Shown piece by piece: positions 626 through 47,196 of a stretch of DNA of 64,000 nt. The notes beneath the pieces are model-generated. The model did no database searches. It saw only the letters and a program-made list of their open reading frames with translations, and was not told where the DNA came from. The DNA is taken from NCBI RefSeq assembly GCF_030409875.1, contig NZ_JAUFQR010000001.1, positions 1,612,001-1,676,000 of the forward strand. The letters are read 5' to 3'. The position numbers and the translations under genes are program-made. How positions within the stretch are numbered: position 1 is the stretch's first letter; each line of letters begins with the position of its first letter. Origin of the DNA: Chryseobacterium tructae. GTDB lineage: Bacteria > Bacteroidota > Bacteroidia > Flavobacteriales > Weeksellaceae.

Positions 626-1753
626 TTTATTGCATTAGCAAAAGAAAAAGGACATTCTGAAGATTATATCGAGGCTTGCGTTGGATATGCTAAAAAACTA
701 ATGACAAATCAATATCCAGTTCTTTTTACGTTAGAACATTTAGCTATTGCAATGGGAGTTAAGTCTAGCTTTCTTCGGTGGCTTATTGGAGATTTAAAAA
801 CCCAAGATATAGTAACAAACCCAATATTTGAACTTAAACAAAAGAGATATCAATTATTTTCAATTAAGAAGAGAAGAGGAGGTAGGAGAGAAATAATGGC
901 TCCAGATAAAGATCTTAAATATATTCAAAAATGGATTACGTTTAATATCCTAGATAAATACCCATTAAAAGAGAGTTGTAAAGGTTTTAGACAGAATATA
1001 TCGATAAAAGACAATGCCTTAGTACATGAAGGTGCATCTAAAATCTTAAAAGTAGATCTTTTGAAATTTTATGATACTATTACAGAAGAGCGAGTATATG
1101 GTGTATTTAAAAATATGGGATATCAAGGTAACCTAGCTGTAAGTTTATCAAAATTATGTACTTATAAACATAGTTCTAAATATTGGAATAGCTTTAAATC
1201 CAAAGAAAAAGAAATTCTATCTTATTATATAAAAGAAATGCCTGCAATTTTACCCCAAGGATGTCCATCAAGTCCTATGCTTGCAAATATTATTGCCTCT
1301 AAAATGGATTTTAGATTTGAAGAGCTGGCAAAGAAAATGAATTTTTCCTATTCTAGATATGCAGATGATCTAACTTTTTCAATTAAAGAGAATGGAATTT
1401 TACCATCAGTCTCGTTTATAAATAAGATTATTACAGATGAAGGGTTTTATATGAACTCTGAAAAAGTGAAATACATGTTAAAAGGGCAAAAACAATATGT
1501 CACAGGACTCACTGTAACTAATGGAGTTCATACTTCAAAAAAATATAGAAAAAAAATAGCAAGACATATCCATTTTTGTCGAAAATTTGGTGTCGAAAGA
1601 CACCTCACTAAAGTTCGTGAAGATTTTTTAGGATACACAACATTGAATTTTCATGACTGGTTATATGGTCATATTTGTTTTATACATTCAATTGATAAAG
1701 AATATAGTGAACAATTATTAAAAGATTTTAATAAGATTAATTGGTTTATATAA
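602..1753 (+). CDS. retron-type reverse transcriptase
   Basis: A 383-residue RT that would reverse-transcribe the adjacent msr-msd RNA into msDNA linked to a branching guanosine. Retron-specific marks are present: the region X motif NAxxH as NALVH at residues 138-142, the catalytic YADD at 253-256, the PQGCPSSP block just before it, and the region Y motif VTG at 300-302. The length fits retron RTs (about 300-400 aa). No maturase or endonuclease domain follows, so a group II intron protein is unlikely. The ATG at 602 lies inside the a2 arm, and the next methionine (residue 34) would remove conserved N-terminal sequence. In phage defence the RT, msDNA and effector form an inactive complex that is released on infection; that role here is inferred. 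Confidence 0.9.
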   Translation: MNSFPIERFIALAKEKGHSEDYIEACVGYAKKLMTNQYPVLFTLEHLAIAMGVKSSFLRWLIGDLKTQDIVTNPIFELKQKRYQLFSIKKRRGGRREIMAPDKDLKYIQKWITFNILDKYPLKESCKGFRQNISIKDNALVHEGASKILKVDLLKFYDTITEERVYGVFKNMGYQGNLAVSLSKLCTYKHSSKYWNSFKSKEKEILSYYIKEMPAILPQGCPSSPMLANIIASKMDFRFEELAKKMNFSYSRYADDLTFSIKENGILPSVSFINKIITDEGFYMNSEKVKYMLKGQKQYVTGLTVTNGVHTSKKYRKKIARHIHFCRKFGVERHLTKVREDFLGYTTLNFHDWLYGHICFIHSIDKEYSEQLLKDFNKINWFI

Positions 1754-33282: not shown

Positions 33283-34485
33283 TTATAAACCAATATTTTT
33301 AGTTGGTTTCAATTGCTTTAGAATATTCTTTGGAATAGCATTTTTGTGAACCAAAATTGCCGTCGACTTATATTCAACATAAGGTCTTGTTACGTAAAGG
33401 TATCCTGCGAAGTCATTGGTTACTCCCCAAGAGTTTTTCACCATATAATATTCTTTACCGGTCTGATCTTTTGCCAATCCTACGATGTGCATACCATGGT
33501 CATCCGTTGTAGAAAGATTGTTAAGTGCTTTCTGACGCATATCCTCAGTAATTGTTTTATCCTTTTTAGGTTCTGTAAACAAAGTTTGTTTGTTCTCTGC
33601 ATTGATTTGATCTAACTCCATATCAGGAACATAAGCTACCCCGTTTTTATAAGAGAAATAAGGCTCAGAAACGTCAGTTGCCCAACCTACAGAATATCCT
33701 TTTGTTACTGCATTATCAATGATTGCTGTAAGATCTTTCATAGGGACATTCCAATCTGAATCGTGGCTCCAGTTATCAGGAATTGGAACTACAAATTTTT
33801 GGTAGTAAGCGTAATCTTTGTAAGAAGATAATTCTACATAATCCTCAGCATCAATTCCTACTACTTCTTTAGCAAAAGTTTTAGGTGTGTAATTTTTCCC
33901 TTCGTAAGTGAAGTTGGCAGGTACTTTTCCTAGATATTCATCAAGAATAGCATCTACAGAATCCATCCAATTATCTGTAAGCTTCCCTTTAGAAGAAGCT
34001 TGAACAAGACTGTCAAGAACCGGCTTTAATTTCCCTTGCATTTCCTTGAAGTTATTGGTGGTCTGTCCAGCTTTCAATCCTGAATACACATCCTGAGGAA
34101 CTGCACCGTACTTTTTGTACATGTTGATTACATCGTGAAGTTCTCCACCGTCACCCCAGCTGATTGCTCCGTTATTTAAAACATATAACTTCGCTTTATC
34201 ATGATAAGAGTTTCTGGCTGTAAAGATTTCAGCAAGATCTACAGGTTTTTTGCCCATTCTCTGCATTTCAGATTCAAGGAAAGAGTTTCCTGAGTAGCTC
34301 CAGCAAGTTCCTGATGAACCCTGATTCTTTACAGAAGTAGCTCCAACGTCTTTTAACGTTGTGAACTGAAAATTAGCATTTTGTGAGTGGTTGTTTTTTA
34401 ACTTATTGATTAAGTCATCTTGGGCAAACATCATACTTCCTGCAGACAAAACAAAAAGTAATGATGCAATTTTCGCATTTTTCAT
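33283..34485 (-). CDS. secreted C1-family (bleomycin hydrolase/aminopeptidase C type) cysteine peptidase
   Basis: A 400-residue papain-fold peptidase. It has a signal peptide (MKNAKIASLLFVLSAGSMMFA) and the catalytic Cys in KNQGSSGTCWSYSGNSFLESE. The His is in TTDDHGMHIVG and the Asn in YMVKNSWGV. The insertion pattern (DNWSHDSDWNVPMKDL) is that of the C1B/PepC branch. I use ATG 34485, where the signal peptide begins; the open frame runs 54 codons further upstream through AT-rich sequence. It would trim peptides in the periplasm. Confidence 0.9.
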   Translation of the reverse strand: MKNAKIASLLFVLSAGSMMFAQDDLINKLKNNHSQNANFQFTTLKDVGATSVKNQGSSGTCWSYSGNSFLESEMQRMGKKPVDLAEIFTARNSYHDKAKLYVLNNGAISWGDGGELHDVINMYKKYGAVPQDVYSGLKAGQTTNNFKEMQGKLKPVLDSLVQASSKGKLTDNWMDSVDAILDEYLGKVPANFTYEGKNYTPKTFAKEVVGIDAEDYVELSSYKDYAYYQKFVVPIPDNWSHDSDWNVPMKDLTAIIDNAVTKGYSVGWATDVSEPYFSYKNGVAYVPDMELDQINAENKQTLFTEPKKDKTITEDMRQKALNNLSTTDDHGMHIVGLAKDQTGKEYYMVKNSWGVTNDFAGYLYVTRPYVEYKSTAILVHKNAIPKNILKQLKPTKNIGL

Positions 34486-34681
34486 TACTGTAAAAAGATT
34501 ATTTGTATTAATAGTCGTTAATAATAGAGATTTGTTACAAGGGGAAAAGTTAAATTTGAAATTAAAAAAATATGGTAGAGATAAATCGTTGTTTACCAAA
34601 TTCATCTTTACCTCAAAAAAGTTGATCATGTTTCCAACCCCAACCAAAGTTCCTGCATCTATACTAATATAACTCCTGACT

Positions 34682-35200
34682 ATGGAACGAGAATTATTAT
34701 TGGAATGCCAGCGTAGCGACCGTAATGCACAGCGGAAAGTCTACGAGAAAATGGCGGGTAGACTGTACTCAGTCTGCAAGCGCTATTTGAAAAACGATGA
34801 AGATATAGAAGAAGTATTGGCCGATACATTCTATAAAATTTTCACGAAAATTAGCCAACTTCAGAATCCCGAAACTTTTGAAGCCTGGGCGAAAAAAATT
34901 GCAGTGAATGAATGTCTTCAGAAATTAAGAAATGATAAAGCTTTGTTTATTTCTCTGGAAGAAAATAGGGTAGAATACTCCGAAGAATCATCAGAACATA
35001 TTTCTTTTGAAAAAGATATTCTGAGTTTGTTAAACTTTCTTCCTGAAGGCTGCAGAGCTATTTTTAATCTTTTTGCGATTGAAGGATATCCGCATAAGGA
35101 AATAGCTTCTATGCTTTCTATTAGCGAGGGAACCTCGAAATCTCAACTCAATTTTGCACGGAAAAAACTTCAGGAACTTTTGGTGAATCAAAACATTTAA
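34682..35200 (+). CDS. ECF-type RNA polymerase sigma factor
   Basis: A 172-residue sigma-70 family factor with region 2 (YSVCKRYLKNDEDIEEVLADTFYKIF) and region 4 (LPEGCRAIFNLFAIEGYPHKEIASML, then SEGTSKSQLNFARKKLQ). Its stop is 12 bases before the next gene, whose N-terminus has the soluble-stalk-plus-membrane-helix layout of Bacteroidota anti-sigma-like partners. It probably directs expression of the five-gene locus that follows. Confidence 0.9.
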   Translation: MERELLLECQRSDRNAQRKVYEKMAGRLYSVCKRYLKNDEDIEEVLADTFYKIFTKISQLQNPETFEAWAKKIAVNECLQKLRNDKALFISLEENRVEYSEESSEHISFEKDILSLLNFLPEGCRAIFNLFAIEGYPHKEIASMLSISEGTSKSQLNFARKKLQELLVNQNI

Positions 35201-35212
35201 ACTTTTACTACA

Positions 35213-37728
35213 ATGGAAAATAATCATATAGATCAACAATTCAATGAAGCTTCCAAGCTTTCAGAAGAACCAACGGTTTTTCCTGGTTTTGAAAAAGTTT
35301 GGACAAAGGTGGAAGAGAAGCTAGATCAGAAAAAAGAAAAAAAGAGAATCATTCCTGTTTGGTTACCTTATGGTATTGCTGCAAGTCTGGTGATTGGTAT
35401 GGGAGCTTTATATTTCATGGATAAAAAAGGTACATCAGAACCTTTGAAACCTTTAATTACAGAGAATACAACTCTAAGGGTTCCGGTGAACAAAACGGAT
35501 ATTGCGAAAATAGACAGTACGATAAAGAATAATATCAAAAAAGAAAAAAATACTGTTAAACCGATAGAAAAACTGGCAGCCAATGCAACACCTGAACCTG
35601 CCAAGTCTTCTGTGGGACTTTCTACTCCGCCTTCAACTTTACCAGTTCTGGTACCTTCTAATCAGGTGTCTCAAAGAGTAATTGGTGAATATCAATCAGA
35701 GAAAGAGATAAACGACGATATATTTAGTAATAGAAAAGCAGAGTTTAAAACCGATGAATATTTTATTAAAAAGAAAGATCACAGTGAGTCCACTAAGGGA
35801 ATTGATCAAGTTGTTGTTACAGCATTAGGTATTAAAAAAAATCAAAAATCAATATCTGCTTCGAATTCAATTACAAGTACACCTTTGAATAACCTGCCAC
35901 AATCCACTGTTTATTCTTCATTGCAGGGGACTGTTCAAGGGATTCAAATCACGGCTTCCGGAAGTGGATCGGTAAGTAATCAGGGGAATAGTATAATAAA
36001 TGACAATAGTCTGGGATATCTTAATGAGAATAAGATCATGATCAGAGGAGTAGCGTCTGTAAAAGCAGAGAATAAAGCATTATATGTTATTAATGGAGTA
36101 GTGGTAGGAGAGGAAGTATTCAGAAATGTAGATCCGAATAAAATTGAAAGCATAAATGTTTTAAAAGAAAGTTCCGCTACAACAATGTATGGAAGCAGAG
36201 CCGCCAATGGAGTGATTGTGGTGACCACTAAAAACCTTTCAGGAAAGGAAAAAAGAAAATTAAAGAGACTTCAGAAAGAAATCAACAAACAAAAACAGAT
36301 TTCACCGGTTACTCATCCTGATGAAAGCTATGATGCCTTTGTTGAAAATCCTTTTGAGCTGACCCGCAGCCAGCCTTTATCCACCTTTTCCATAGATGTT
36401 GATAATGCCTCTTATTCCAACATAAGAAGGATGATCAATAATGGGCAGACAGTCGATAAAAATGCAGTAAGAATCGAAGAAATGGTTAACTATTTTAAAT
36501 ATGATTATCCCCAGCCTAAAAACGGAGAACCTTTTTCAATAAATACCGAATATAACAACTCTCCATGGAATCCGAAGCACAAATTGCTTAGAATAGGACT
36601 TCAGGGAAAAAATATACCGATGGATAAGTTGCCTGCATCAAACCTCGTTTTTCTTATTGATGTTTCAGGTTCAATGGATGCTGAAAATAAATTGCCATTA
36701 TTGAAATCTTCTTTTAAAGTTCTGCTAAATCAGCTGAGACCTAAAGATAAAGTCGGAATTGTAGTATATGCAGGTAGTGCAGGAATGGTCTTACCTCCTA
36801 CATCGGCAGGAGAAAAAGATAAAATTATTGAGGCGCTGGATCATCTTCAGGCAGGAGGAAGTACAGCAGGAGGGCAAGGAATTGAACTGGCTTATAAACT
36901 GGCACAGGAAAACTTTATGAAAGGCGGCAACAACCGTGTTATTATTGCAACAGACGGGGACTTCAATGTAGGAATATCTTCAACTTCGGATCTTAAAACA
37001 TTGATTGAAGACAAAAGGAAATCCGGAGTTTTCCTGACCTGTTTAGGTTTCGGAATGGGTAATTATAAAGACAATACCCTGGAAACTCTTGCAGATAAAG
37101 GAAATGGAAATTATGCCTATATTGATAATATGCAGGAAGCCAATAAATTTCTAGGGAAAGAATTTGCAGGAAGCATGTATGCCATAGCCAAAGATGTGAA
37201 AATCCAGATTGAATTTAATCCCGAATATGTAAAATCATACCGTCTGATCGGTTATGAGAATAGGAAACTTAAGAATGAGGACTTTGTGAATGATAAAATA
37301 GATGCTGGGAACTGGGAAGCGGGCATACTGTTACAGCTTTATACGAGGTGATTCCTACAGATATAAAATCAGACTTTATTCCCAAAGAAAGCGATTTGAA
37401 ATATACTCAGAATACCTCTTCGAAAGAATTTGGAGATGAACTGGCGACCATCAAATTCAGATATAAAAAGCCTGACGGAGATACCAGCAGTGAAATCAGT
37501 CAGATTGTTAAAAATGCTGACAACAGCATATCTTCTGCCAGTTCGGATTTTAAATTTGCCTCGTCAGTAGCATGGTTTGGTTTAGTAGTAAGAAAGTCCG
37601 CGCTGATTACCCAAAAAGACCTTTCTGATATTGAAAAACTGGCCAAACAGGGTAAAAGTAAAGATGAAGAAGGCTATCGTTCAGAGTTTATAAGATTGAT
37701 AGAAAGTTATAAAACCATTCAAAAATAA
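35213..37728 (+). CDS. anti-sigma-like/SusC-plug/von Willebrand A fusion protein, one frameshift
   Basis: An 838-residue protein when repaired. Residues 1-45 are a charged stalk (FEKVWTKVEEKLDQKKEKKR) as in proteins paired with ECF sigma factors, and 48-69 form one membrane helix. Residues about 196-342 are a SusC-type TonB plug: SSLQGTVQGIQITASGSGS, NKIMIRGVASVKAENKALYV, and the ending VLKESSATTMYGSRAANGVI. A YfbK-like von Willebrand region follows ([20 protein letters not shown]), with a MIDAS-type DVSGSMDAE near residue 480 and a conserved C-terminal domain. A -1 frameshift at about 37308 (GGGG to GGG) is repaired by comparison with the paralogue at 45280. Confidence 0.83.
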
Positions 37729-37785
37729 TTTGTAAAAAGAAATTTCCCCGGAAATTTCTTTTTCTTTATTTTAGTATCTATTACC

Positions 37786-40563
37786 ATGAAGATGAGAAAA
37801 AATTATTTACTGCTGCTGTTGCCGCTTACTGTTACGGTATTGAAGGCACAGGATTCAAACCTATATTATTCGGGAAAGTTCCTGAATCTCAAAAATAAAC
37901 CACAGAATTTCTTAAAAGTCTATAATAAAAACAGTGGCGTCTATGAGTTAACAGATGCCGAAGGGACTGCAGTCATTGCAGCCAAGCCCTATGATACTTT
38001 AGTATGGAATCAAGGAAAGAACACCAGGGTTGTTGTATCTTATCAGTTAAAGGAACTTAAAAATATTTTAGAAAATCAGGTAGAGAAAAAATCTGTGCAG
38101 AAGATTTACAGTAAGGCTTATGATAGTCTGATGTCAAGAAAGAATGGAGAAAAATTTAGTATTGATAACGCACCAACCATTCTAAACAATGATTCTGATA
38201 AATATTTTAGCCGTGTAAGAAAACTGAAACAGAAAACAGACAGTACTTATATTCTGAAGGAGCAAAAAACATGGACATTCTTATTGAATGGAGGCTTTAC
38301 CTCTTCTGTTGAGGTGAGAGATCATAATGCTCTTCCCATAACGCAAAGTAAATATGTACAAGGAAGATCTGATGGTGGAAATCTTAGGTGGAACGGGCCT
38401 GCTACCAATGAGATGTTTAGCTTTGGGCCAGATATTTCTACATTAGCTTTTGACGGACTTTCCTATCAGTATGATCACAACGGCAGATTGGTTCCGTTAA
38501 CGGATGGTCTTAAACAGGCAAAAGCTTATCGTAATAACCTGTTTAAAACGATGGTTGGATATAACAATCAGCTTAGTATTAATACGGTTATAAAGCAAGA
38601 ATACAAAGAAAGGTTTCGTTTATCGCTGGATTTGAAGCAACAAAAAAATCAACTTTATTTTATTGATCAGTTTAATCTAAACAACTCCATTAAAACAAAA
38701 CTGAAAATGGATCTGGGCGGTTATATGCTGAAGTTTTCATTCAATTATGAAGATAATAAAGCTACCAATACCAACAGAGTTGGACTTTTCAATAGAGCCT
38801 ATCAAAATTCCCTATTGACTCCCATTTCATTTTCGAATGCTCAACAGACCTTTTTGGATAATGGAGGTCAACGAAGCTACAGCCAGTATGCTGATAATCC
38901 TGCATTTCTTTTTGTACAGGATAAAAAGTATCGTTATCAAAACCGTCAAAGACAATTCGGTCTCAATGTTGATAAAACTTTTGGTAATTTTAAATTAAAC
39001 ATTATTCAGTCCTACGAAAGTAATTTTCTTTGGAACCAGGATCAATATCAGCCGTCTGCTTATGGATTCAGCAACGGGATCATCAATGAAAGAGAACAAA
39101 ATAATAGGCTGTACCATTCCAATATACAGGGAAAGTATGAACTGGGTAACTATAATTTTAAAAATATTTTCAGCCTTAATTTTATTCTAAATGATATAAA
39201 AACTGATGTTTACAATAGTTTGATTAATCAAAGACAAATCTATCAAAGAACCTCTCAGGATTATGTTTTTAATTATAATATGGGTATAAAATCTAATGAT
39301 TTTGAGGCGGATGTTAATCTTGGAAACACCTTTTATATCTCCAATACATCGGATAAAAATGCTTATTGGCTTCCCAAAGCCACGGGTTACCTTCTTTTTA
39401 AGGATATTTTTGACTGGAATAAGTTTGATTTTAAAGTCACAGGAGGGTATAGCCAGTTGAGTTCAGAACCTGAGATAACAAGATCATATGCCTCTTATGC
39501 TACCACTTTATTGAAGGCTGAAAACTATTACAGATATTTTCCCGTGCGGGAGGTTGAAAGCTTTAAAGGCCTGTCCAATATCAATACAAAAGAATGGAAA
39601 ATAGGCGGGAAGATAAATTATGGATATAACATTAGTCTTGAAGGTGAATATTTTAACAGGAAAAGTGAGAACGATATTTTTCCTGTATTTGAAAACAATC
39701 AGTTGAGGTTAAGAAATAGTGCCGATCATACGTATAGTGGGTATGAATTTAACTTTGCATATGAAAGGCTCTATCTGGCCTATAATTTTTTTACTACCAA
39801 TAAAATTTCATTTTTCAAATATAAAGATATTGTAGATCGTGTGGTACCAGGGTATAACAACAGTGCTGTTGCTGGATTTCAGGATGTTTATAAAACTTTG
39901 ACGGAAGGGCAGGTTCTAGGAGCAGTAATGGGAAGCTATTTTGAAAGGAATGCCGATGGACAGTTGATTATTGATGATTCAGGTTTTCCTAAAAAAGCTA
40001 ATGGTATGAAGATTATTGCTGATCCAACTCCGGATTTTGTCATGAAATTCAATCATAACTTAACCTATAAAAGATGGACTCTGGATATCAATTGGGAATG
40101 GAAAAAAGGCGGCCAGATCTGGAATGGAACTCAGGCTGTTTTAGATTATTACGGACGTTCCTATGACTCAGGAGAAGAACGAAATATTAAAAATTATGTT
40201 TTTCAAGGAGTATTGGCTAATGGTAATAGCAATCAGACTCCAGTCGATTTTTATAATCCCAATCAAAACGTTCATGAAAACAGATGGTCAAGATATGGAT
40301 ATCTCGGCGTGGCAGAAAACTATGTTCAAAAGGCAGATCATATAAGGATTAATAATATTTCTCTATCCACGAATTTTCCTTTGAATAATAGCCAGCGATC
40401 TATAAGCATTACTTTGTATGTAGACAATATCATGCTTTGGCAGGCGAATAAAGGAGTAGATCCCAATCAGAGTTTTTATGATACAGACAATGGAAAAGGA
40501 CTGGACTTCTTTAATCTCCCGTCTTTTAAAGCATTTGGCTGCATTGTTTCATTCAAATTTTAA
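37786..40563 (+). CDS. SusC/TonB-receptor-like outer-membrane barrel without a visible plug
   Basis: A 925-residue outer-membrane protein with a signal peptide (MRKNYLLLLLPLTVTVLKAQ). A short regulatory-like beta domain comes first (residues about 25-85), then a linker (YSKAYDSLMSRKNGEKFS). Next are alternating aromatic barrel strands to the C-terminus, ending SFKAFGCIVSFKF. The end resembles SusC proteins (NPNQNVHENRWSRYG, then KADHIRINNISLSTNFPL). I find no VLQGKVAGV-like or GSRAANGVI-like plug motif in its N-terminal part. Both motifs occur in the genes on either side. The cargo is unknown. Confidence 0.8.
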   Translation: MKMRKNYLLLLLPLTVTVLKAQDSNLYYSGKFLNLKNKPQNFLKVYNKNSGVYELTDAEGTAVIAAKPYDTLVWNQGKNTRVVVSYQLKELKNILENQVEKKSVQKIYSKAYDSLMSRKNGEKFSIDNAPTILNNDSDKYFSRVRKLKQKTDSTYILKEQKTWTFLLNGGFTSSVEVRDHNALPITQSKYVQGRSDGGNLRWNGPATNEMFSFGPDISTLAFDGLSYQYDHNGRLVPLTDGLKQAKAYRNNLFKTMVGYNNQLSINTVIKQEYKERFRLSLDLKQQKNQLYFIDQFNLNNSIKTKLKMDLGGYMLKFSFNYEDNKATNTNRVGLFNRAYQNSLLTPISFSNAQQTFLDNGGQRSYSQYADNPAFLFVQDKKYRYQNRQRQFGLNVDKTFGNFKLNIIQSYESNFLWNQDQYQPSAYGFSNGIINEREQNNRLYHSNIQGKYELGNYNFKNIFSLNFILNDIKTDVYNSLINQRQIYQRTSQDYVFNYNMGIKSNDFEADVNLGNTFYISNTSDKNAYWLPKATGYLLFKDIFDWNKFDFKVTGGYSQLSSEPEITRSYASYATTLLKAENYYRYFPVREVESFKGLSNINTKEWKIGGKINYGYNISLEGEYFNRKSENDIFPVFENNQLRLRNSADHTYSGYEFNFAYERLYLAYNFFTTNKISFFKYKDIVDRVVPGYNNSAVAGFQDVYKTLTEGQVLGAVMGSYFERNADGQLIIDDSGFPKKANGMKIIADPTPDFVMKFNHNLTYKRWTLDINWEWKKGGQIWNGTQAVLDYYGRSYDSGEERNIKNYVFQGVLANGNSNQTPVDFYNPNQNVHENRWSRYGYLGVAENYVQKADHIRINNISLSTNFPLNNSQRSISITLYVDNIMLWQANKGVDPNQSFYDTDNGKGLDFFNLPSFKAFGCIVSFKF

Positions 40564-40566
40564 CCC

Positions 40567-43500
40567 ATGAATTTCAAATTTACATCATATATCATAGTAC
40601 TGAGTCTATTACTTTCAACCATATGCCTGAAGGCTCAGCATTTATTTCAGGATTTTGAAAAAGAAAAAACCTACATCCAGACCAACCATGTTTTTTATAA
40701 ACCTGGAGAAGAAATGTACTTTAAAATATACGTAGTACAAGGAAAAAATAATCTTCCGGCAGAAGATAGTAAAGCGGTTAATTTTGAAATGATTGATCCC
40801 GCAGGAAGTGTTTTGAGAAAATCAAAATATGAGATAAATAATGGATATGCTGAAGGGTATTTCTCCTTTGATCATGATATGAAAGGAGGTATTTATAAAA
40901 TTAGAGCCTATACCAATTGGATGCAAAATGAAGAAGGAAAAAATGCTTTTGAAAAAGAAATTACTTTGCAGAAAGTAGTATCTCCCAGGGTTTTGATGAA
41001 GCTTGATTTTCCCAAGAAAGGATATGGCCCTGGTGATGAGGTAATCGCAGACTTTTCAATGAGAAGTCTTAGTAATCTGCCAATCCCTTTTTATGAAGCC
41101 GATTATGTGGTGACCCATAATGGAGACGTGGTTACAGAAGGCAAGCTCATTACAGATAAAGAAGGAAAAAAACGATTGCAATTCAAACTTCCTAAGGTAT
41201 TGAAATCCTCTGATGCTCTTTTGAATATCAAAGTTAATTTTGATGGATTTACAGAATCTATCGCAAAAAATATTCCTATTGTACTGAACAATCTGGATGT
41301 GAAATTCTTGCCGGAAGGAGGAACTCTTATTAATGGAATAGAGCAAAATATAGCTTTTAAAATACTGGATGAATTTGAAAAACCTGTGGATGCCGTTTTA
41401 GGAATTTATAATCAGAATCATGAAAAAATATCTCAGATTTCCACATATAATTTCGGAATGGGCAGCTTTCTATTGACACCCAAAACAGGAGAAACGTATT
41501 ACGCAAAAGTAATAAAGCCTGAAAATATAAGCCAGATCTATCAAATTCCTGTAGCTAAAACCGAAGGTTTGATTCTGAATATCAAAAAAGAAAACGGAAC
41601 GCTTTTATTTAAAACAGTTTCTACACAGGACAAGAATATTGTTTTAAAAGGATTTTTCCGTGAAAAAGAAATGTATAGCAAAGAAATATCTTTGAAAAAA
41701 GGGGGCAACTTATTTGAATTAGCGGAGAAAGATTTCCCTGTGGGAGTTTGCCGATTTACGGTGTTTGAAAATAATACTCCTTTCGCAGAACGTATTGTTT
41801 TTACCAATAAAGATCAGCAGATGAATATAAAGGTAAAGCCAGTAAAAGAGTATTACCAACCAAGAGAAAAGGTGATTCTTGATATTGAAACCACAGACAA
41901 AAACAATAAACCTATCCCTGCAAATATGGCCATTAGTGTGGTAGATGATAAGCTTTGGACGTATGCAGACGATAAACAAAATCATATCATTTCATGGCTC
42001 CTGATGGATTCTGAATTAAAAGGAAAGATTGAAAAACCTCAGTTTTATTTCGATAAAAAAGAAGAAAAAGCAGATAAAAGTCTGGATCTGGTCATGTTAA
42101 CTAACGGATACAGGTATTTTGAGCCTATTCCGGAGATTATTAAAACAGGTAAGTACAAATATTTGCCTGAAAAGAAAGGAACTGTATATGGAGTCGTAGA
42201 AGACGAGAATAAAAAGCCCGTAAAAGCAAATGTTTTTCTTGTAGAAACTAATAATGGTCATATTCTTGAGCAAACGACTACGGAAAACGGTCAATTTTAT
42301 TTTTCAGGAATGAAATACAGTGACTCTTATAAGCTTATCGCTAAATCATTGAAACCTTGGTATAAAGTGAACATCAGAATTTTGTCATATACACTTGAGA
42401 TTAATCCACTTGTCAAGCAAAAGTTAGCCAATATAGATGCAGAAGAGATTATAAAAGAGGCTGAAATTAAAGAGAAAACAAAAGAGATGGTAAAACTGTC
42501 TGCCACCCCTTCTATAAGAAATAAAGATACAATCTCCTCTTCTGGTCAACATATTGAAGAAGTTGTTTTTGTAGGATATGGATCTGCACAGAAGAAGAAC
42601 CTTACTTCCTCAGTAAGTATTACGGGAAATTCTGAAATTAAAGATTCCAATTTTGAATCAGTATTACAGGGAAAAGTCGCTGGGCTGGTTATTACTCCTG
42701 CAGGAGAAAGGCAGAAAGGAAATGTGGTGATCAGAGGCGCTGCATCAATACCTAATAAAAGCCCATTATTTGTGGTAGACGGAGTTCCCGTAGAAAACTT
42801 TAATGCTACGATTAATCCCAACGATATTAATAGCATTACCGTACTGAAGGATGCTGCAGCAACGGCTATTTACGGAAGCAGAGCCGCCAATGGAGTCGTT
42901 ATTATTAATTCTTTTTTTAATAACACATCACAGAATAAACTTGATATTACTCCTTCATCTTATTTTGCTGTTATGACAATTCCTAAGGATGCTCTTACCC
43001 ATTATTTGGAAAGTAAGAAATTTGCTTATCCAGTATATAAAACAACCAATACTTCCTATAGGTTTGACTATAGAGATGCTCTGTATTGGAATCCTGTAGT
43101 AGAAACCGATAAAAACGGAAAGGCAAAAGTTGAATTTTATAATTCTGATGCCAATTCCACATTCAGAGTGATGACAGAAGGAATCTCCGCATCCGGACTT
43201 ATAGGAAGAGATGAAACCACGTATGCAGCGCAAAGCCTGATCTCCATTGATGCTAAGATTCCACAGTATCTGACAAGAACAGATGAGATGCTTATTCCTG
43301 TGGTGATTAAAAACAATTCAAAGGAGATCAGAAAAATGACGATGGATGTTATTGTTCCCAATCATGTAAAACTGAAATCATCAGACAGCCTGATTACTTT
43401 AAAGCCTCTTGAGGCAGGAAGACTATTTGTTAGAATTCAAACCGATGAAGTGGTAGATTCAAATATTCAGTTCATTATAAGATCCGGAGATTTCAGGGAA

Positions 43501-45073
43501 ACGATGATCCTTCCGTTTAAGGTTGAAGAGAAGGGATTTCCACATCAGTTTCAGTAATAGATAATAAGACAAGAGAAATTCAGGTTACTATTCCGGAGTA
43601 TATCAATGGAAGCTTGTATTCATCATACTATGTCTTTGAAAATGCGGCAATGAAAATGTTTGAAGATCTTGAAAAGTTGAAAAAGGAACCTCACGGATGT
43701 TTTGAACAATTATCCGCCACAGTTTATCCTAATATTTTTATTCTGGATTATCTGAAGCTGAACAAAAAGATTGATAATTCTACAGAAAGCCTTGTGGTTA
43801 GAAACCTTAAAAAAGGCTTTCAGAAGATGATGAGTTATAAAAATGAAGATGGTGGAGTAGGATACTTTAACAGCACTGAATCAGATGTCTCTCTTTCTGC
43901 ATTTGCCTTACTGGAATTTACAGATTTAAAGAAACATATAGTGGTAGATCCAAAGTTGATCCAGGGCTTGTCTTCTTTTATTTTGTCAAAGAAAAGTGGA
44001 AACGGGCTTTTCGAAGTGCGAAAGGATTACGAATCTAAAACAGGAGTTTATTCCGAATATTACTGGGCAAGAAATATGTATGTTCTTTATGCATTGTCGC
44101 AGCTAGGTTTTACAAATGAAATTGAAGATTCTTACCAAATAATGCTAAAAAGAGCCTTGTTGAAAAAAGATTCTTATCAGCTGGCTTTATTAGCTAATGC
44201 TTCGGCTAATCTAGGAAAACAGGCAGAATATGATAATGTAATGTTTGCTCTAAATAAGCAGTTTGATGATCAGAAATTTAAGACTGAAACTACCTTTACC
44301 GGATCCGGAGGAAATTCTGCAACTGCAGAAATACTTTCGCTATATATGATGGCACTTCAGAAAGATGAAAGACTCAATCAGCAGACTATCGCAAAAGTAG
44401 CAGATCAACTTCTGAGTAGTAATGGGTACTATGGCTTTGGCTCTACCCAGGCAACGGGTCTGTCTTTGCAGGCATTATCTCAGTTCTTTATAAAAAATGA
44501 AAAATTGTATAAAACGGATAGACCAGCCATTACAATAAATAATGCTTCAGTATCATCCGGTATAAGCATTTCATCAGCTTACAAACAGGAAATAACAAGA
44601 TCAATATGAGTTATCCTTCAGAAACAGGACTTCTTTATAAATTAGAATACCAATATTATACTTTGCAAGCTCCTGCAAGTTCTGATATCCCTTTAATAAT
44701 GAATACAACATTAAAGTCTGAAAATTCTAAAGTAGGAGAAGCCAACCGAATGACAGTCACCATTAAAAATAAAATAAATAATCAATTACCGATGACTATT
44801 GCAAAAATTGGGATTCCTGCAGGATTGACGCTGCAAAATGCTTTATTGAAAGATTTAATAGATAAAAAACAGATTTCTTTTTATGAGATTTTTGATAATT
44901 ATCTGGTGCTGTATTGGGAACATTTTGATGCTGAAGAAACAAAAACCATCAATCTTGATCTGAAAGTAGAGTTTGCAGGATCTTATACTGGAAAATCAAG
45001 TAATGCTTATCTTTATTATATGCCCGAAGCTAAATACTGGAACCAAGGTGTAAAAACTGAAATTCAACCATAG
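40567..45073 (+). CDS. alpha-2-macroglobulin-like protein with inserted SusC-type plug, two frameshifts
   Basis: About 1,502 residues when repaired. Signal peptide, then MG2-type domains (EEMYFKIYVVQGKNNLP; GGIYKIRAYTNW), then a carboxypeptidase-regulatory-like domain near 540-610 (GTVYGVVEDENKKPVKANVF). A SusC-type plug spans about 659-783 (VLQGKVAGLVITPAGERQKG, then VLKDAAATAIYGSRAANGVV). An A2M domain (YWNPVVETDKNGKAKVEFYN) precedes the thioester-type motif HGCFEQ, Cys1045 to Gln1048. Frameshifts at about 43550 (TTTT to TTT) and 44584 (AAAA to AAA) split it. Bacterial A2Ms trap peptidases covalently. It starts four bases after the barrel gene, so they are cotranscribed. Confidence 0.83.
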
Positions 45074-45097
45074 AAAGGAGAAGAAAGATGAAAGCAA

Positions 45098-45206
45098 GAG
45101 GCTGGAAGTTATGAAGGTCATAAAAATAACTGTTATCATTTTGTAAAGTAATTTTTATGAGATCCAGTGGTGGTCAACCTATAATTAACTTCCTTCTTCC
45201 AGCCTC
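45098..45206. repeat. long-span imperfect inverted repeat
   Basis: GAGGCTGGAAG (45098-45108) has its exact reverse complement at 45196-45206, with partly complementary flanks (GAAGTTATGAAGGTC against the Thr-coding-free stretch ending GACCTTTT). The layout suggests a small dispersed palindromic element between the A2M and vWA genes. It may also separate their transcripts. Confidence 0.5.
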
Positions 45207-45279
45207 CAACTTCCGACCTTTTAATCTTTCAATTCCATTTGAATAAATTTTAATAATTTCCCTCCGAAATTTATAACGC

Positions 45280-47196
45280 ATGAAAAAAACTATTATCACG
45301 ATGTTAGGGCTTGTCTTATTGGTAAGCTGTAAAACTCAACAAACTTCAGAGTCATCAAAAGAAAACAAAACATACAGTATCAGAAAAGATAAAGATCAGG
45401 ATGGTATTCCAAATAAAGAAGATCAATGTCCGGAAGTGGCTGGCCCCATAGAGAATAATGGCTGTCCATGGCCTGAAACAGACGGAGATGGTGTGATTGA
45501 TAAAGACGATGCCTGTCCTACAGTAGCGGGACCCCCTGAAAATAAAGGCTGTCCATGGCCTGATACCGATGGTGATGGAGTACTGGACAAAGATGATGCT
45601 TGCCCTACAGTTCCGGGATTGCCAGAGTATAATGGATGTCCCAAACCCAAATCGTATGTTGCAATGGAAGTCTCATCTTATGAGAGGCCATACATTACTC
45701 CCGGAAAGATCTATAATACCCGGGTTGGGGTAAATAAAGAAAGCAAAAAGGGCACTAAAAAGATTCAAAAAGCTATTGATTATAATAGTGAAGAGTATAC
45801 TGCATTGGTTGAAAATCCGTTTGAGTTAACCAAAAAACAACCCTTATCCACTTTTTCTATCGATGTAGATAATGCATCCTATTCTAATATCAGAAGAATG
45901 ATTAATTATGGACGTAAAGTAGATAAAGATGCCGTAAGAGTAGAAGAAATGCTCAATTATTTTAAATACAATTATCCACAGCCTGAAAAAAATCAACCCT
46001 TCTCTATTAATACAGAATATGGAGATGCTCCATGGAATCCAAAACACAAATTACTTAAGATCGGATTGCAGGGGAAAAATATTCCGATGGATAAGGCGCC
46101 AGCTTCCAATATTGTTTTCCTGATCGATGTTTCAGGATCTATGAATGCCGAAAATAAATTACCATTATTAATATCTTCTCTTAAAATTTTATTAAGTCAG
46201 CTACGTTCTCAGGATAAAGTAGGAATCGTTGTATATGCAGGGAATGCAGGTATTGTCCTGCCATCAACTTCTGCAGGTGAAAAAGCCAAAATTATTAAAG
46301 CTTTAGATGATCTGCAGGCAGGGGGAAGTACGGCCGGTGGAGAAGGAATTGAGTTAGCCTATAAAGTAGCACAGGAAAACTTTATAAAAGGAGGAAATAA
46401 TAGAGTAGTGCTGGCGACAGATGGAGATTTTAACGTAGGAGTATCTTCTACAGGAGGTCTTGAGACATTAATTGAACAAAAAAGAAAAAGTGGAATTTTC
46501 CTTACCTGTCTGGGATATGGAATGGGAAATTATAAAGACAATAAAATGGAAACCCTGGCAGATAAAGGCAATGGAAACTATGCTTATATCGATAATTTGC
46601 AGGAAGCCAATAAATTTCTAGGACGTGAATTTGCAGGAAGCATATACACTATAGCCAAAGATGTAAAGATTCAGATTGAATTTAATCCGGAATTCGTGCA
46701 ATCTTATCGCTTAATCGGATATGAAAACAGAAAGCTGAGAAATGAGGACTTTATCGATGATAAAATAGATGCTGGAGAACTGGGAAGCGGACATACAGTT
46801 ACTGCTTTATACGAGATAATTCCGGCAGATGTACAATCTGAGTTTCTTCCTAAAGATACAAAGCTGAAATATTCATCCTCTTCCAGTACAAAAAACTTTG
46901 GGAAGGAGCTGGCAACAATTAAATTCCGTTATAAGAAGCCAAATGAAGAGATTAGTAAAGAAATAACGGAAGTGATTAAAAAAGAACCCTTACCAGAATC
47001 AAAAGTGAGCCCGGATTTCAAATTTGCTTCTTCTGTAGCATGGTTTGGACTTATTTTAAGAGACTCTAAATTTATAAGAAATAAAGATTTGAAAAAAATC
47101 GAGAATTTGGCAAATGATGGAAAAAGTACAGATACAGAAGGATATAGAGCAGAATTTATAAGACTTGTTGAAAGTTATAAAGCAATCAATCCATAG
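45280..47196 (+). CDS. von Willebrand A lipoprotein with thrombospondin type 3-like repeats
   Basis: A 638-residue lipoprotein: signal [17 protein letters not shown] with lipobox Cys17. Residues about 35-120 hold three Asp-rich calcium-type repeats ([19 protein letters not shown]) spaced by CPWP motifs. The rest is a YfbK-like von Willebrand protein with [14 protein letters not shown] near residue 280 and the same C-terminal domain as the plug-carrying paralogue at 35213. It lacks the plug and the cytosolic stalk. It is intact here and so served to locate the frameshift in the paralogue. It is likely exposed on the outer membrane, where it could bind a protein or metal ligand. Confidence 0.88.

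What the first reader, a model, noticed from the sequence alone, without database searches (positions are those of the whole stretch)
34682..47196. Sigma factor / vWA / plug-less barrel / alpha-2-macroglobulin locus with relocated SusC plugs
Five genes in one direction. A SusC-type barrel (37786) shows no plug motif, while the gene before it (vWA fusion) and the gene after it (alpha-2-macroglobulin) each carry an internal plug ending in an almost identical YGSRAANGV motif. A possible reading is that the plug is supplied in trans by two surface proteins, tying barrel gating to an adhesion module and a peptidase trap. This could be a surface defence or capture system.
Basis: partly seen in the sequence, partly recalled or inferred. 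Interest (0 to 1): 0.88.

Follow-up and report, generated by a model that had tools for sequence, protein, structure and literature searches.

The report
Protease trap carrying a pore's plug
A bacterial outer-membrane pore of the SusC type lacks the plug that normally closes it, while the gene next door, for a protease-trapping protein, carries a complete plug; if the two fit together, a nutrient-style gate and a protease trap have become one two-part machine.

Summary
Gene 37786-40560 is a SusC-family barrel without a plug: Pfam Plug matches 0 of 38 orthologues, against 15 of 15 ordinary SusC-type relatives. The next gene, an alpha-2-macroglobulin (A2M) with a thioester motif, carries a whole plug (30 of 30 scanned). 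On a SusC profile, barrel and A2M cover complementary parts. Searched separately in 395 genomes of the order, the barrel family and the A2M fall in the same 26 genomes, adjacent in all 26. The plug stretch of A2M tracks barrel divergence more than most of A2M does; a replicate was weaker. Best reading: a split TonB-dependent receptor whose plug sits in a periplasmic protease trap. No complex could be modelled, so docking is inferred.

The second plug is different. The gene before the barrel looks like a transmembrane anti-sigma factor beside an ECF sigma gene. Its vWA part is variable, the pair occurs without barrel and A2M in 15 of 32 same-genus genomes, and its plug shows no co-divergence with the barrel. 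The shared YGSRAANGV motif is the common SusC signature (19 matches over cut-off in this genome). 'Adhesion module' and 'defence' are unsupported.

The parts
34682..35197 (+). ECF sigma factor
   Evidence: Pfam Sigma70_r2 and r4_2; best NCBIfam TIGR02985 below its cut-off
35213..37348 (+). likely transmembrane anti-sigma factor: about 45 conserved N-terminal residues, TM-like stretch about 48-68, linker, SusC-type Plug (aa 211-334), YfbK-type vWA; frame broken near the end
   Evidence: anti-sigma role inferred from position, conserved N-terminus and TM-like stretch (by eye)
37348..37725 (+). remainder of the same gene (YfbK_C) in another frame
   Evidence: Pfam YfbK_C positions 62-183; unbroken copy P0241 exists
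37786..40560 (+). plug-less SusC-family barrel: signal-peptide-like start, CarboxypepD-like sandwich (27-82), about 80-aa linker, 22 predicted barrel strands from residue 163
40567..43554 (+). A2M first piece: signal-peptide-like start, MG2, CarboxypepD_reg (539-594), Plug (676-777) between two low-confidence linkers, A2M domain (839-926)
43614..44606 (+). A2M second piece: thioester domain with GCFEQ
   Evidence: Pfam TED_complement E 1.5e-22; GCxEQ in 30 of 30 relatives
44606..45070 (+). A2M third piece: receptor-binding / MG10 domain
   Evidence: Pfam A2M_recep
45280..47193 (+). neighbouring TSP3-repeat + YfbK-type vWA gene without plug; lipoprotein-like start by eye; not part of the core
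   Evidence: variable position or absence in relatives

Best explanation
A split TonB-dependent receptor of the SusC family. One gene makes the outer-membrane barrel with its N-terminal CarboxypepD-like domain but no plug. The next gene makes an alpha-2-macroglobulin, a thioester protease trap, that carries a whole SusC plug between two flexible linkers near where the bait region lies. After export the plug would enter the barrel from the periplasm, closing the pore and holding the trap under the outer membrane; E. [quoted passage not shown] Cleavage near the plug by a protease entering the envelope would both spring the trap and change the pore. The upstream ECF sigma and transmembrane anti-sigma, with a plug of its own, probably control expression in the genus. 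Shown: domain content, missing plug, adjacency, co-occurrence, co-divergence. Inferred: docking, topology, TonB use, the bait role and regulation.
For: Plug in 0 of 38 barrels (Pfam; SusC-plug HMM) and in 15 of 15 ordinary relatives. On a SusC profile built from those 15 (1,025 positions) 38 of 38 barrels cover none of the plug positions 100-245, while 30 of 30 A2Ms cover at least 70% of them; in L051 and L061 the barrel matches about 2-87 and 254-1023 and the A2M 75-251. NCBI's SusC model gives the same split. The barrel model has 22 strands from residue 163 and aligns to known receptors from their first barrel strand. Plug, TED, MG2 and A2M domains in 30 of 30 A2Ms. Barrel family and A2M in the same 26 of 395 genomes, adjacent in all 26; 38 pairs in 38 genomes overall. 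Barrel divergence tracks the plug windows of A2M: partial r up to 0.79 against -0.38 to 0.49 in windows outside residues 536-835; replicate of 33 pairs: 0.50, 0.51, 0.41, 0.25 over the plug.
Against: No complex could be predicted and no experiment exists. Models are middling (pLDDT 65.7 and 62.3; the A2M plug lower), and residues 1-163 of the barrel were barely tested by fold comparison. In the replicate a thioester-domain window (1135-1234) also reaches 0.51. TED-less MG proteins carry plug domains (Pfam 24-59 bits over most of the model) with no SusC barrel found beside them, so a plug can sit in such proteins for other reasons. The gene-2 plug covers the same SusC positions. Within the genus the plug is the most divergent of six A2M segments measured. 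The barrel's own 80-aa linker could block the pore.
Confidence: 0.6

Rival explanations
1. Orphan plug as a general handle: the A2M plug binds TonB or other SusC proteins, or is just a domain picked up by periplasmic proteins, while the plug-less barrel is closed by its own N-terminal domain, linker and loops.
For: Plug domains occur in TED-less MG proteins without a SusC barrel nearby, in the anti-sigma gene where barrel and A2M are absent (14 of 15 by BLAST), in a secreted 134-aa plug-only protein and in a small ORF with two partial plugs (L051). A few linker residues are invariant across lineages.
Against: Co-occurrence and adjacency of A2M-plug with the plug-less barrel; complementary profile coverage; co-divergence.
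Confidence: 0.25
2. [quoted passage not shown]
For: In the same-genus loci both plug genes flank the barrel, sometimes with the second vWA gene between; Plug in 33 of 35 gene-2 proteins; Dma proteins join an anti-sigma domain, TM helix and tether to an outer-membrane barrel (PMC13088901, introduction and passages read).
Against: Sigma and gene 2 persist without barrel/A2M in 15 of 32 same-genus genomes; no co-divergence of gene-2 plug and barrel (partial r -0.09); in the five other-family loci barrel and A2M stand without this sigma/gene-2 pair next to them.
Confidence: 0.12
3. Barrel is a decaying or mis-assembled SusC gene and the plug fusion is incidental.
For: Frame breaks in this assembly; one relative has the barrel interrupted by a transposase ORF, one has lost most of both genes.
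Against: Long open frames of 38 orthologues in two families with invariant residues; relatives of the broken genes are unbroken.
Confidence: 0.03

Closest known systems
SusC/RagA family TonB-dependent receptors (e.g. BT2261-2264 SusC, BT1763, RagA)
   Same: 22-strand barrel, CarboxypepD-like N-terminal domain; best structural matches
   Different: no plug in the polypeptide; no SusD among nine neighbouring proteins scanned in five other-family loci
Bacterial alpha-2-macroglobulins (E. coli ECAM/YfhM)
   Same: MG domains, thioester domain with CXEQ, receptor-binding-type C-terminus; Foldseek finds A2M/C3/C5/ECAM
   Different: SusC plug and CarboxypepD domain between bait-region domain and A2M domain; no lipobox in 30 of 30; [quoted passage not shown]
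   Same: N-terminal anti-sigma segment, TM helix, long tether; Dma1 and Dma2 have a cognate ECF sigma (PMC13088901)
   Different: ends in a plug (with or without vWA), not in a barrel; the barrel is a separate gene
FecA/FpvA/FoxA cell-surface signalling (TonB-dependent transducer + anti-sigma + ECF sigma)
   Same: ECF sigma, membrane anti-sigma and TonB-receptor parts together (PMC11637429, abstract and outline)
   Different: the signalling receptor there keeps its own plug (passages of PMC11658791); here a plug domain sits in the anti-sigma gene and another in A2M

Membership tests
SusC/RagA TonB-dependent receptor (gene 37786) | 22-strand outer-membrane barrel | tested here: met
SusC/RagA TonB-dependent receptor (gene 37786) | plug domain in the same chain | tested here: not met
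   Pfam Plug 0 of 38 orthologues; profile coverage of plug positions 0 in 38 of 38; control 15 of 15
SusC/RagA TonB-dependent receptor (gene 37786) | adjacent SusD-type lipoprotein | tested here: inconclusive
   none among nine neighbouring proteins of five other-family loci; the other loci were not scanned for it
SusC/RagA TonB-dependent receptor (gene 37786) | TonB-dependent transport | not testable with these tools
   a TonB-box-like EEVV-GYG stretch lies before the plug in A2M; that this is a TonB box is recalled
Alpha-2-macroglobulin (gene 40567) | MG domains, A2M domain and thioester domain with CXEQ | tested here: met
   MG2, A2M, TED in 30 of 30 relatives; GCxEQ in 30 of 30; window pieces
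Alpha-2-macroglobulin (gene 40567) | bait-region cleavage and covalent protease trapping | not testable with these tools
   A2M_BRD matched in 18 of 30; function untested
Dual membrane-spanning anti-sigma (gene 35213) | C-terminal barrel in the same chain | tested here: not met
   Plug, and vWA or nothing after it; none of 35 covers half of the SusC barrel positions
ECF anti-sigma factor (gene 35213) | sigma-binding N-terminal domain plus TM beside an ECF sigma | tested here: inconclusive
   next to sigma in the 34 loci read for it, conserved N-terminus and TM-like stretch; no family model matched the N-terminus; binding untested
Known anti-phage defence system | match to a PADLOC model | tested here: not met
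   no match for plug gene, barrel, A2M or second vWA gene; one weak sigma hit to a CARF model, E 0.003

The most novel reading that the evidence does not exclude
A two-part outer-membrane gate in which the pore's plug is a domain of a thioester protease trap: a protease that cuts the plug's tether opens or alters the pore and springs the trap in one event, and a second, anti-sigma-borne plug reads whether the pore is occupied and switches an ECF sigma factor.
Probability: 0.12. Interest if true: 0.93.

Novelty: new variant of a known kind. Interest (0 to 1): 0.76.

Why it matters
In every TonB-dependent receptor that I know of (recalled), plug and barrel are one chain, and whether the plug leaves the barrel during transport is a long debate. 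A natural receptor whose plug is part of a separate, large protein would make that question directly testable, would give a second way to anchor an A2M in a bacterial envelope, and suggests a function for plug domains in other non-barrel proteins of the Bacteroidota.

Tried and rejected
Two plugs serving the barrel: not supported for the vWA gene. Motif identity as evidence: rejected, it is a family signature. Adhesion module: rejected, the vWA part is a variable add-on. Pseudogene or assembly artefact: rejected for the barrel. TED-less MG proteins as further cases: no ORF of 150 aa or more in L052-L058 other than the MG proteins matched the barrel or SusC profiles (L056 is a short contig). 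A claim that only the A2Ms of this locus have a whole plug was weakened: of seven TED-less MG proteins, one matched my SusC-plug profile whole (L054), five only in its last third, one not at all, but Pfam matched most of its Plug model in the five scanned, and 33 of 35 gene-2 proteins also cover the plug part. Two extra barrel hits (G143, G664) are ordinary SusC proteins with plugs, one beside a SusD.

Limits of counts. Searches scored at most two first-look candidates per genome. The 16 ordinary SusC proteins were picked by me from the hits; one was left out because its frame ran off the fetched piece. One search scanned 30 A2Ms (29 of the 38 pair loci plus one with an interrupted barrel); eight were left out by the size limit, and the window's own was scanned in pieces. 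The co-divergence test used 23 same-genus loci and dropped the six of other genera. Its replicate used 33 pairs matched by me through equal contig length among the 120 + 120 listed proteins, without pairs already used; some may be the same species. Rate artefact: equally fast A2M windows (285-434) show no positive partial correlation in the first set, but in the replicate 335-434 gives 0.23 and 1135-1234 gives 0.51.

Papers. Searches that found nothing on a plug in A2M or a plug-less SusC: no hits; nothing on it in the listings; PMC12939704 was searched for it (passages). The library lacks most subscription journals. A FhuA plug-in-trans precedent is recalled; it was looked for (listings) and in PMC11658791 (passages) and not found.
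Full report
Observation. The region holds five genes on one strand. The third, 37786-40560, matches no Pfam family even at E<=1; it matches the NCBI SusC profile TIGR04056 over positions 273-981. The second and fourth genes carry Pfam Plug domains. Two genes are frame-broken in this assembly, but unbroken relatives exist. Named relatives are Chryseobacterium.

The barrel has no plug. The AlphaFold2 model (40-row alignment, pLDDT 65.7, pTM 0.59) gives a small sandwich (27-82), a weakly predicted linker, and 22 barrel strands from residue 163 (counted by me from the listed elements, leaving out short pieces at 693-745). VIA-align matches start at model residue 162-168 in the 50 rows shown, at chain residue 134 in BtuB, 158 in FhuA, 221 in FecA and about 209 in BT1763 (that these are the first barrel strands is recalled). 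The N-terminal 163 residues were barely tested there, so the missing plug rests on sequence profiles. Pfam Plug: 0 of 38 orthologous barrels against 15 of 15 ordinary SusC-type relatives scanned the same way. A SusC-plug profile built from those 15 finds none in the 38 barrels.

The plug is in the A2M. Of 30 A2M proteins from the loci, 30 match Plug, TED, MG2 and A2M, 30 have GCxEQ, none has a lipobox-like pattern in the first 80 residues, and 29 span the SusC-plug profile end to end. The plug lies between two long stretches that are low-confidence in the model (635-688 and, mostly, 785-846) and only 10-26% identical between lineages, while the plug is 38-55% identical to the reference. It comes after the bait-region-domain match and before the A2M domain, i.e. 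near the bait position; that the linkers serve as bait is inference. Complementarity: on a whole-SusC profile of 1,025 positions built from the 15 ordinary proteins, 38 of 38 barrels cover none of positions 100-245 (28 of 38 cover at least half of 258-1022), while 30 of 30 A2Ms cover at least 70% of 100-245 and none covers half of the barrel part. In L051 the barrel matches 2-87 and 258-1022 and its neighbour A2M 80-251; in L061 8-86 and 254-1023, and 75-251. On TIGR04056 the barrel P0362 matches 208-981, A2M P0122 72-304 (its end runs past the plug and may be an over-extension) and the gene-2 protein 73-205. Gene 2 thus also fits the gap (33 of 35); the next two points separate the two candidates.

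Travel. In 59 genomes of relatives, the window's own included, the barrel is found whole in 15 same-genus genomes and G037, interrupted in G003, and as a fragment in G001. A2M is found in the same genomes, with a contig-edge piece in G021 and a fragment in G001. In 395 genomes of the order, A2M and barrel were searched separately: 26 genomes with A2M, 28 with a barrel-family hit. The two extra ones are ordinary SusC proteins with plugs. The remaining 26 are the same genomes: 20 of the genus and six outside it (G640, G037, G280, G654, G714, G730); in G714 the barrel match is partial (310-792) in an 806-aa ORF. In all 26 the genes are adjacent, barrel first. Over all loci read there are 38 pairs in 38 genomes (the window's A2M frame-broken). 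In 392 genomes of the phylum the whole A2M with plug was seen in four, all in this order (G000, G002, G037, G280); an A2M with TED but no plug (G188) has no SusC-type barrel among its neighbours.

Co-divergence. With 23 same-genus pairs, distances among barrels were compared with distances among 100-residue windows of A2M after regressing out the rest of A2M. Partial r peaks in the plug (0.79 for 685-784, 0.76 for 735-834, 0.63 for 635-734, also 0.61 for 535-634) and is -0.38 to 0.49 in windows outside 536-835. By segments, plug and CarboxypepD each give 0.685, reached by 0 of 500 permutations; A2M domain 0.18, TED -0.17, MG10 0.14. The gene-2 plug gives -0.09. In 33 other pairs the windows over the plug give 0.50, 0.51, 0.41 and 0.25, but one thioester-domain window also gives 0.51. 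Pairs are not independent, so this is support, not proof.

Gene 2. In 35 orthologues Plug is found in 33, VWA in 29, YfbK_C in 14 and a T9SS sorting tail in 15; six are only 328-378 aa. The constant part is the N-terminal segment and TM-like stretch. Sigma (E<=1e-40) and gene 2 occur in 32 of 36 same-genus genomes. In 15 of these 32 there is no barrel or A2M at the site (16 have A2M there, and G001 has remnants); in the 15, the papain-like peptidase gene flanks in 14 and the HTH gene was recognised in 13. So barrel + A2M is a two-gene cassette at a sigma/anti-sigma site in the genus. In the five other-family loci it stands without this pair next to it, although two of them have another ECF-type sigma gene divergently upstream (L050 by Pfam; L063 by similarity). 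This argues against gene 2 as the barrel's obligatory plug.

Mechanism and standing. The most economical reading is a split SusC receptor with its plug in a protease trap. Shown: anatomy, missing plug, co-occurrence, adjacency, co-divergence. Inferred: docking, outer-membrane tethering, bait role, TonB coupling, regulation. [quoted passage not shown] replacing that anchor by a pore plug would put the trap at the point of entry. The closest regulatory relatives are the Dma anti-sigma factors (PMC13088901, abstract, introduction and passages) and FoxA-type signalling (PMC11637429, abstract and outline). [quoted passage not shown]

Noticed in passing
L034-L049, L060, L064-L080 (gene after sigma); window 35213-37725: The C-terminal module of the anti-sigma/plug gene is swapped between close relatives: YfbK-type vWA, a different vWA with a T9SS sorting tail, or nothing. 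A T9SS tail on a protein with an N-terminal TM-like stretch is odd.
   Followed up: partly
L112:2039-3958 (genome G037): Second sigma + anti-sigma-like pair followed by a 134-aa protein with a signal-peptide-like start that is little more than a partial SusC plug.
   Followed up: partly
L051:4123-4593: Small ORF just upstream of the plug-less barrel that matches the last part of a SusC plug twice.
   Followed up: no
window 37.3 kb, 43.55 kb, 44.6 kb: Frame breaks in the vWA and A2M genes, probably assembly errors; a 99%-identical unbroken vWA protein exists on a contig of near-identical length.
   Followed up: partly
L048:8666-9550; L049:7729-8267: One relative has the barrel interrupted by an IS4/5-type transposase; another has a deletion joining the barrel start to the A2M end, i.e. 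both genes lost together.
   Followed up: yes
A2M plug, window 42592-42897: Within the genus the plug is the most divergent of six A2M segments measured (mean distance 0.47), yet 38-55% identical between lineages; exchange with other SusC plugs is possible.
   Followed up: no
window 33283-34647 (- strand): A papain-like C1 peptidase gene flanks the sigma gene divergently in most same-genus loci, with or without the A2M trap.
   Followed up: no
L061:5170-6297: In another family's locus a separate vWA gene lies just upstream of the plug-less barrel.
   Followed up: no
L053-L058: TED-less MG2 proteins of about 807-904 aa with a plug or part of one occur in other families of the phylum with no SusC barrel found next to them; what their plug binds is open.
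   Followed up: partly
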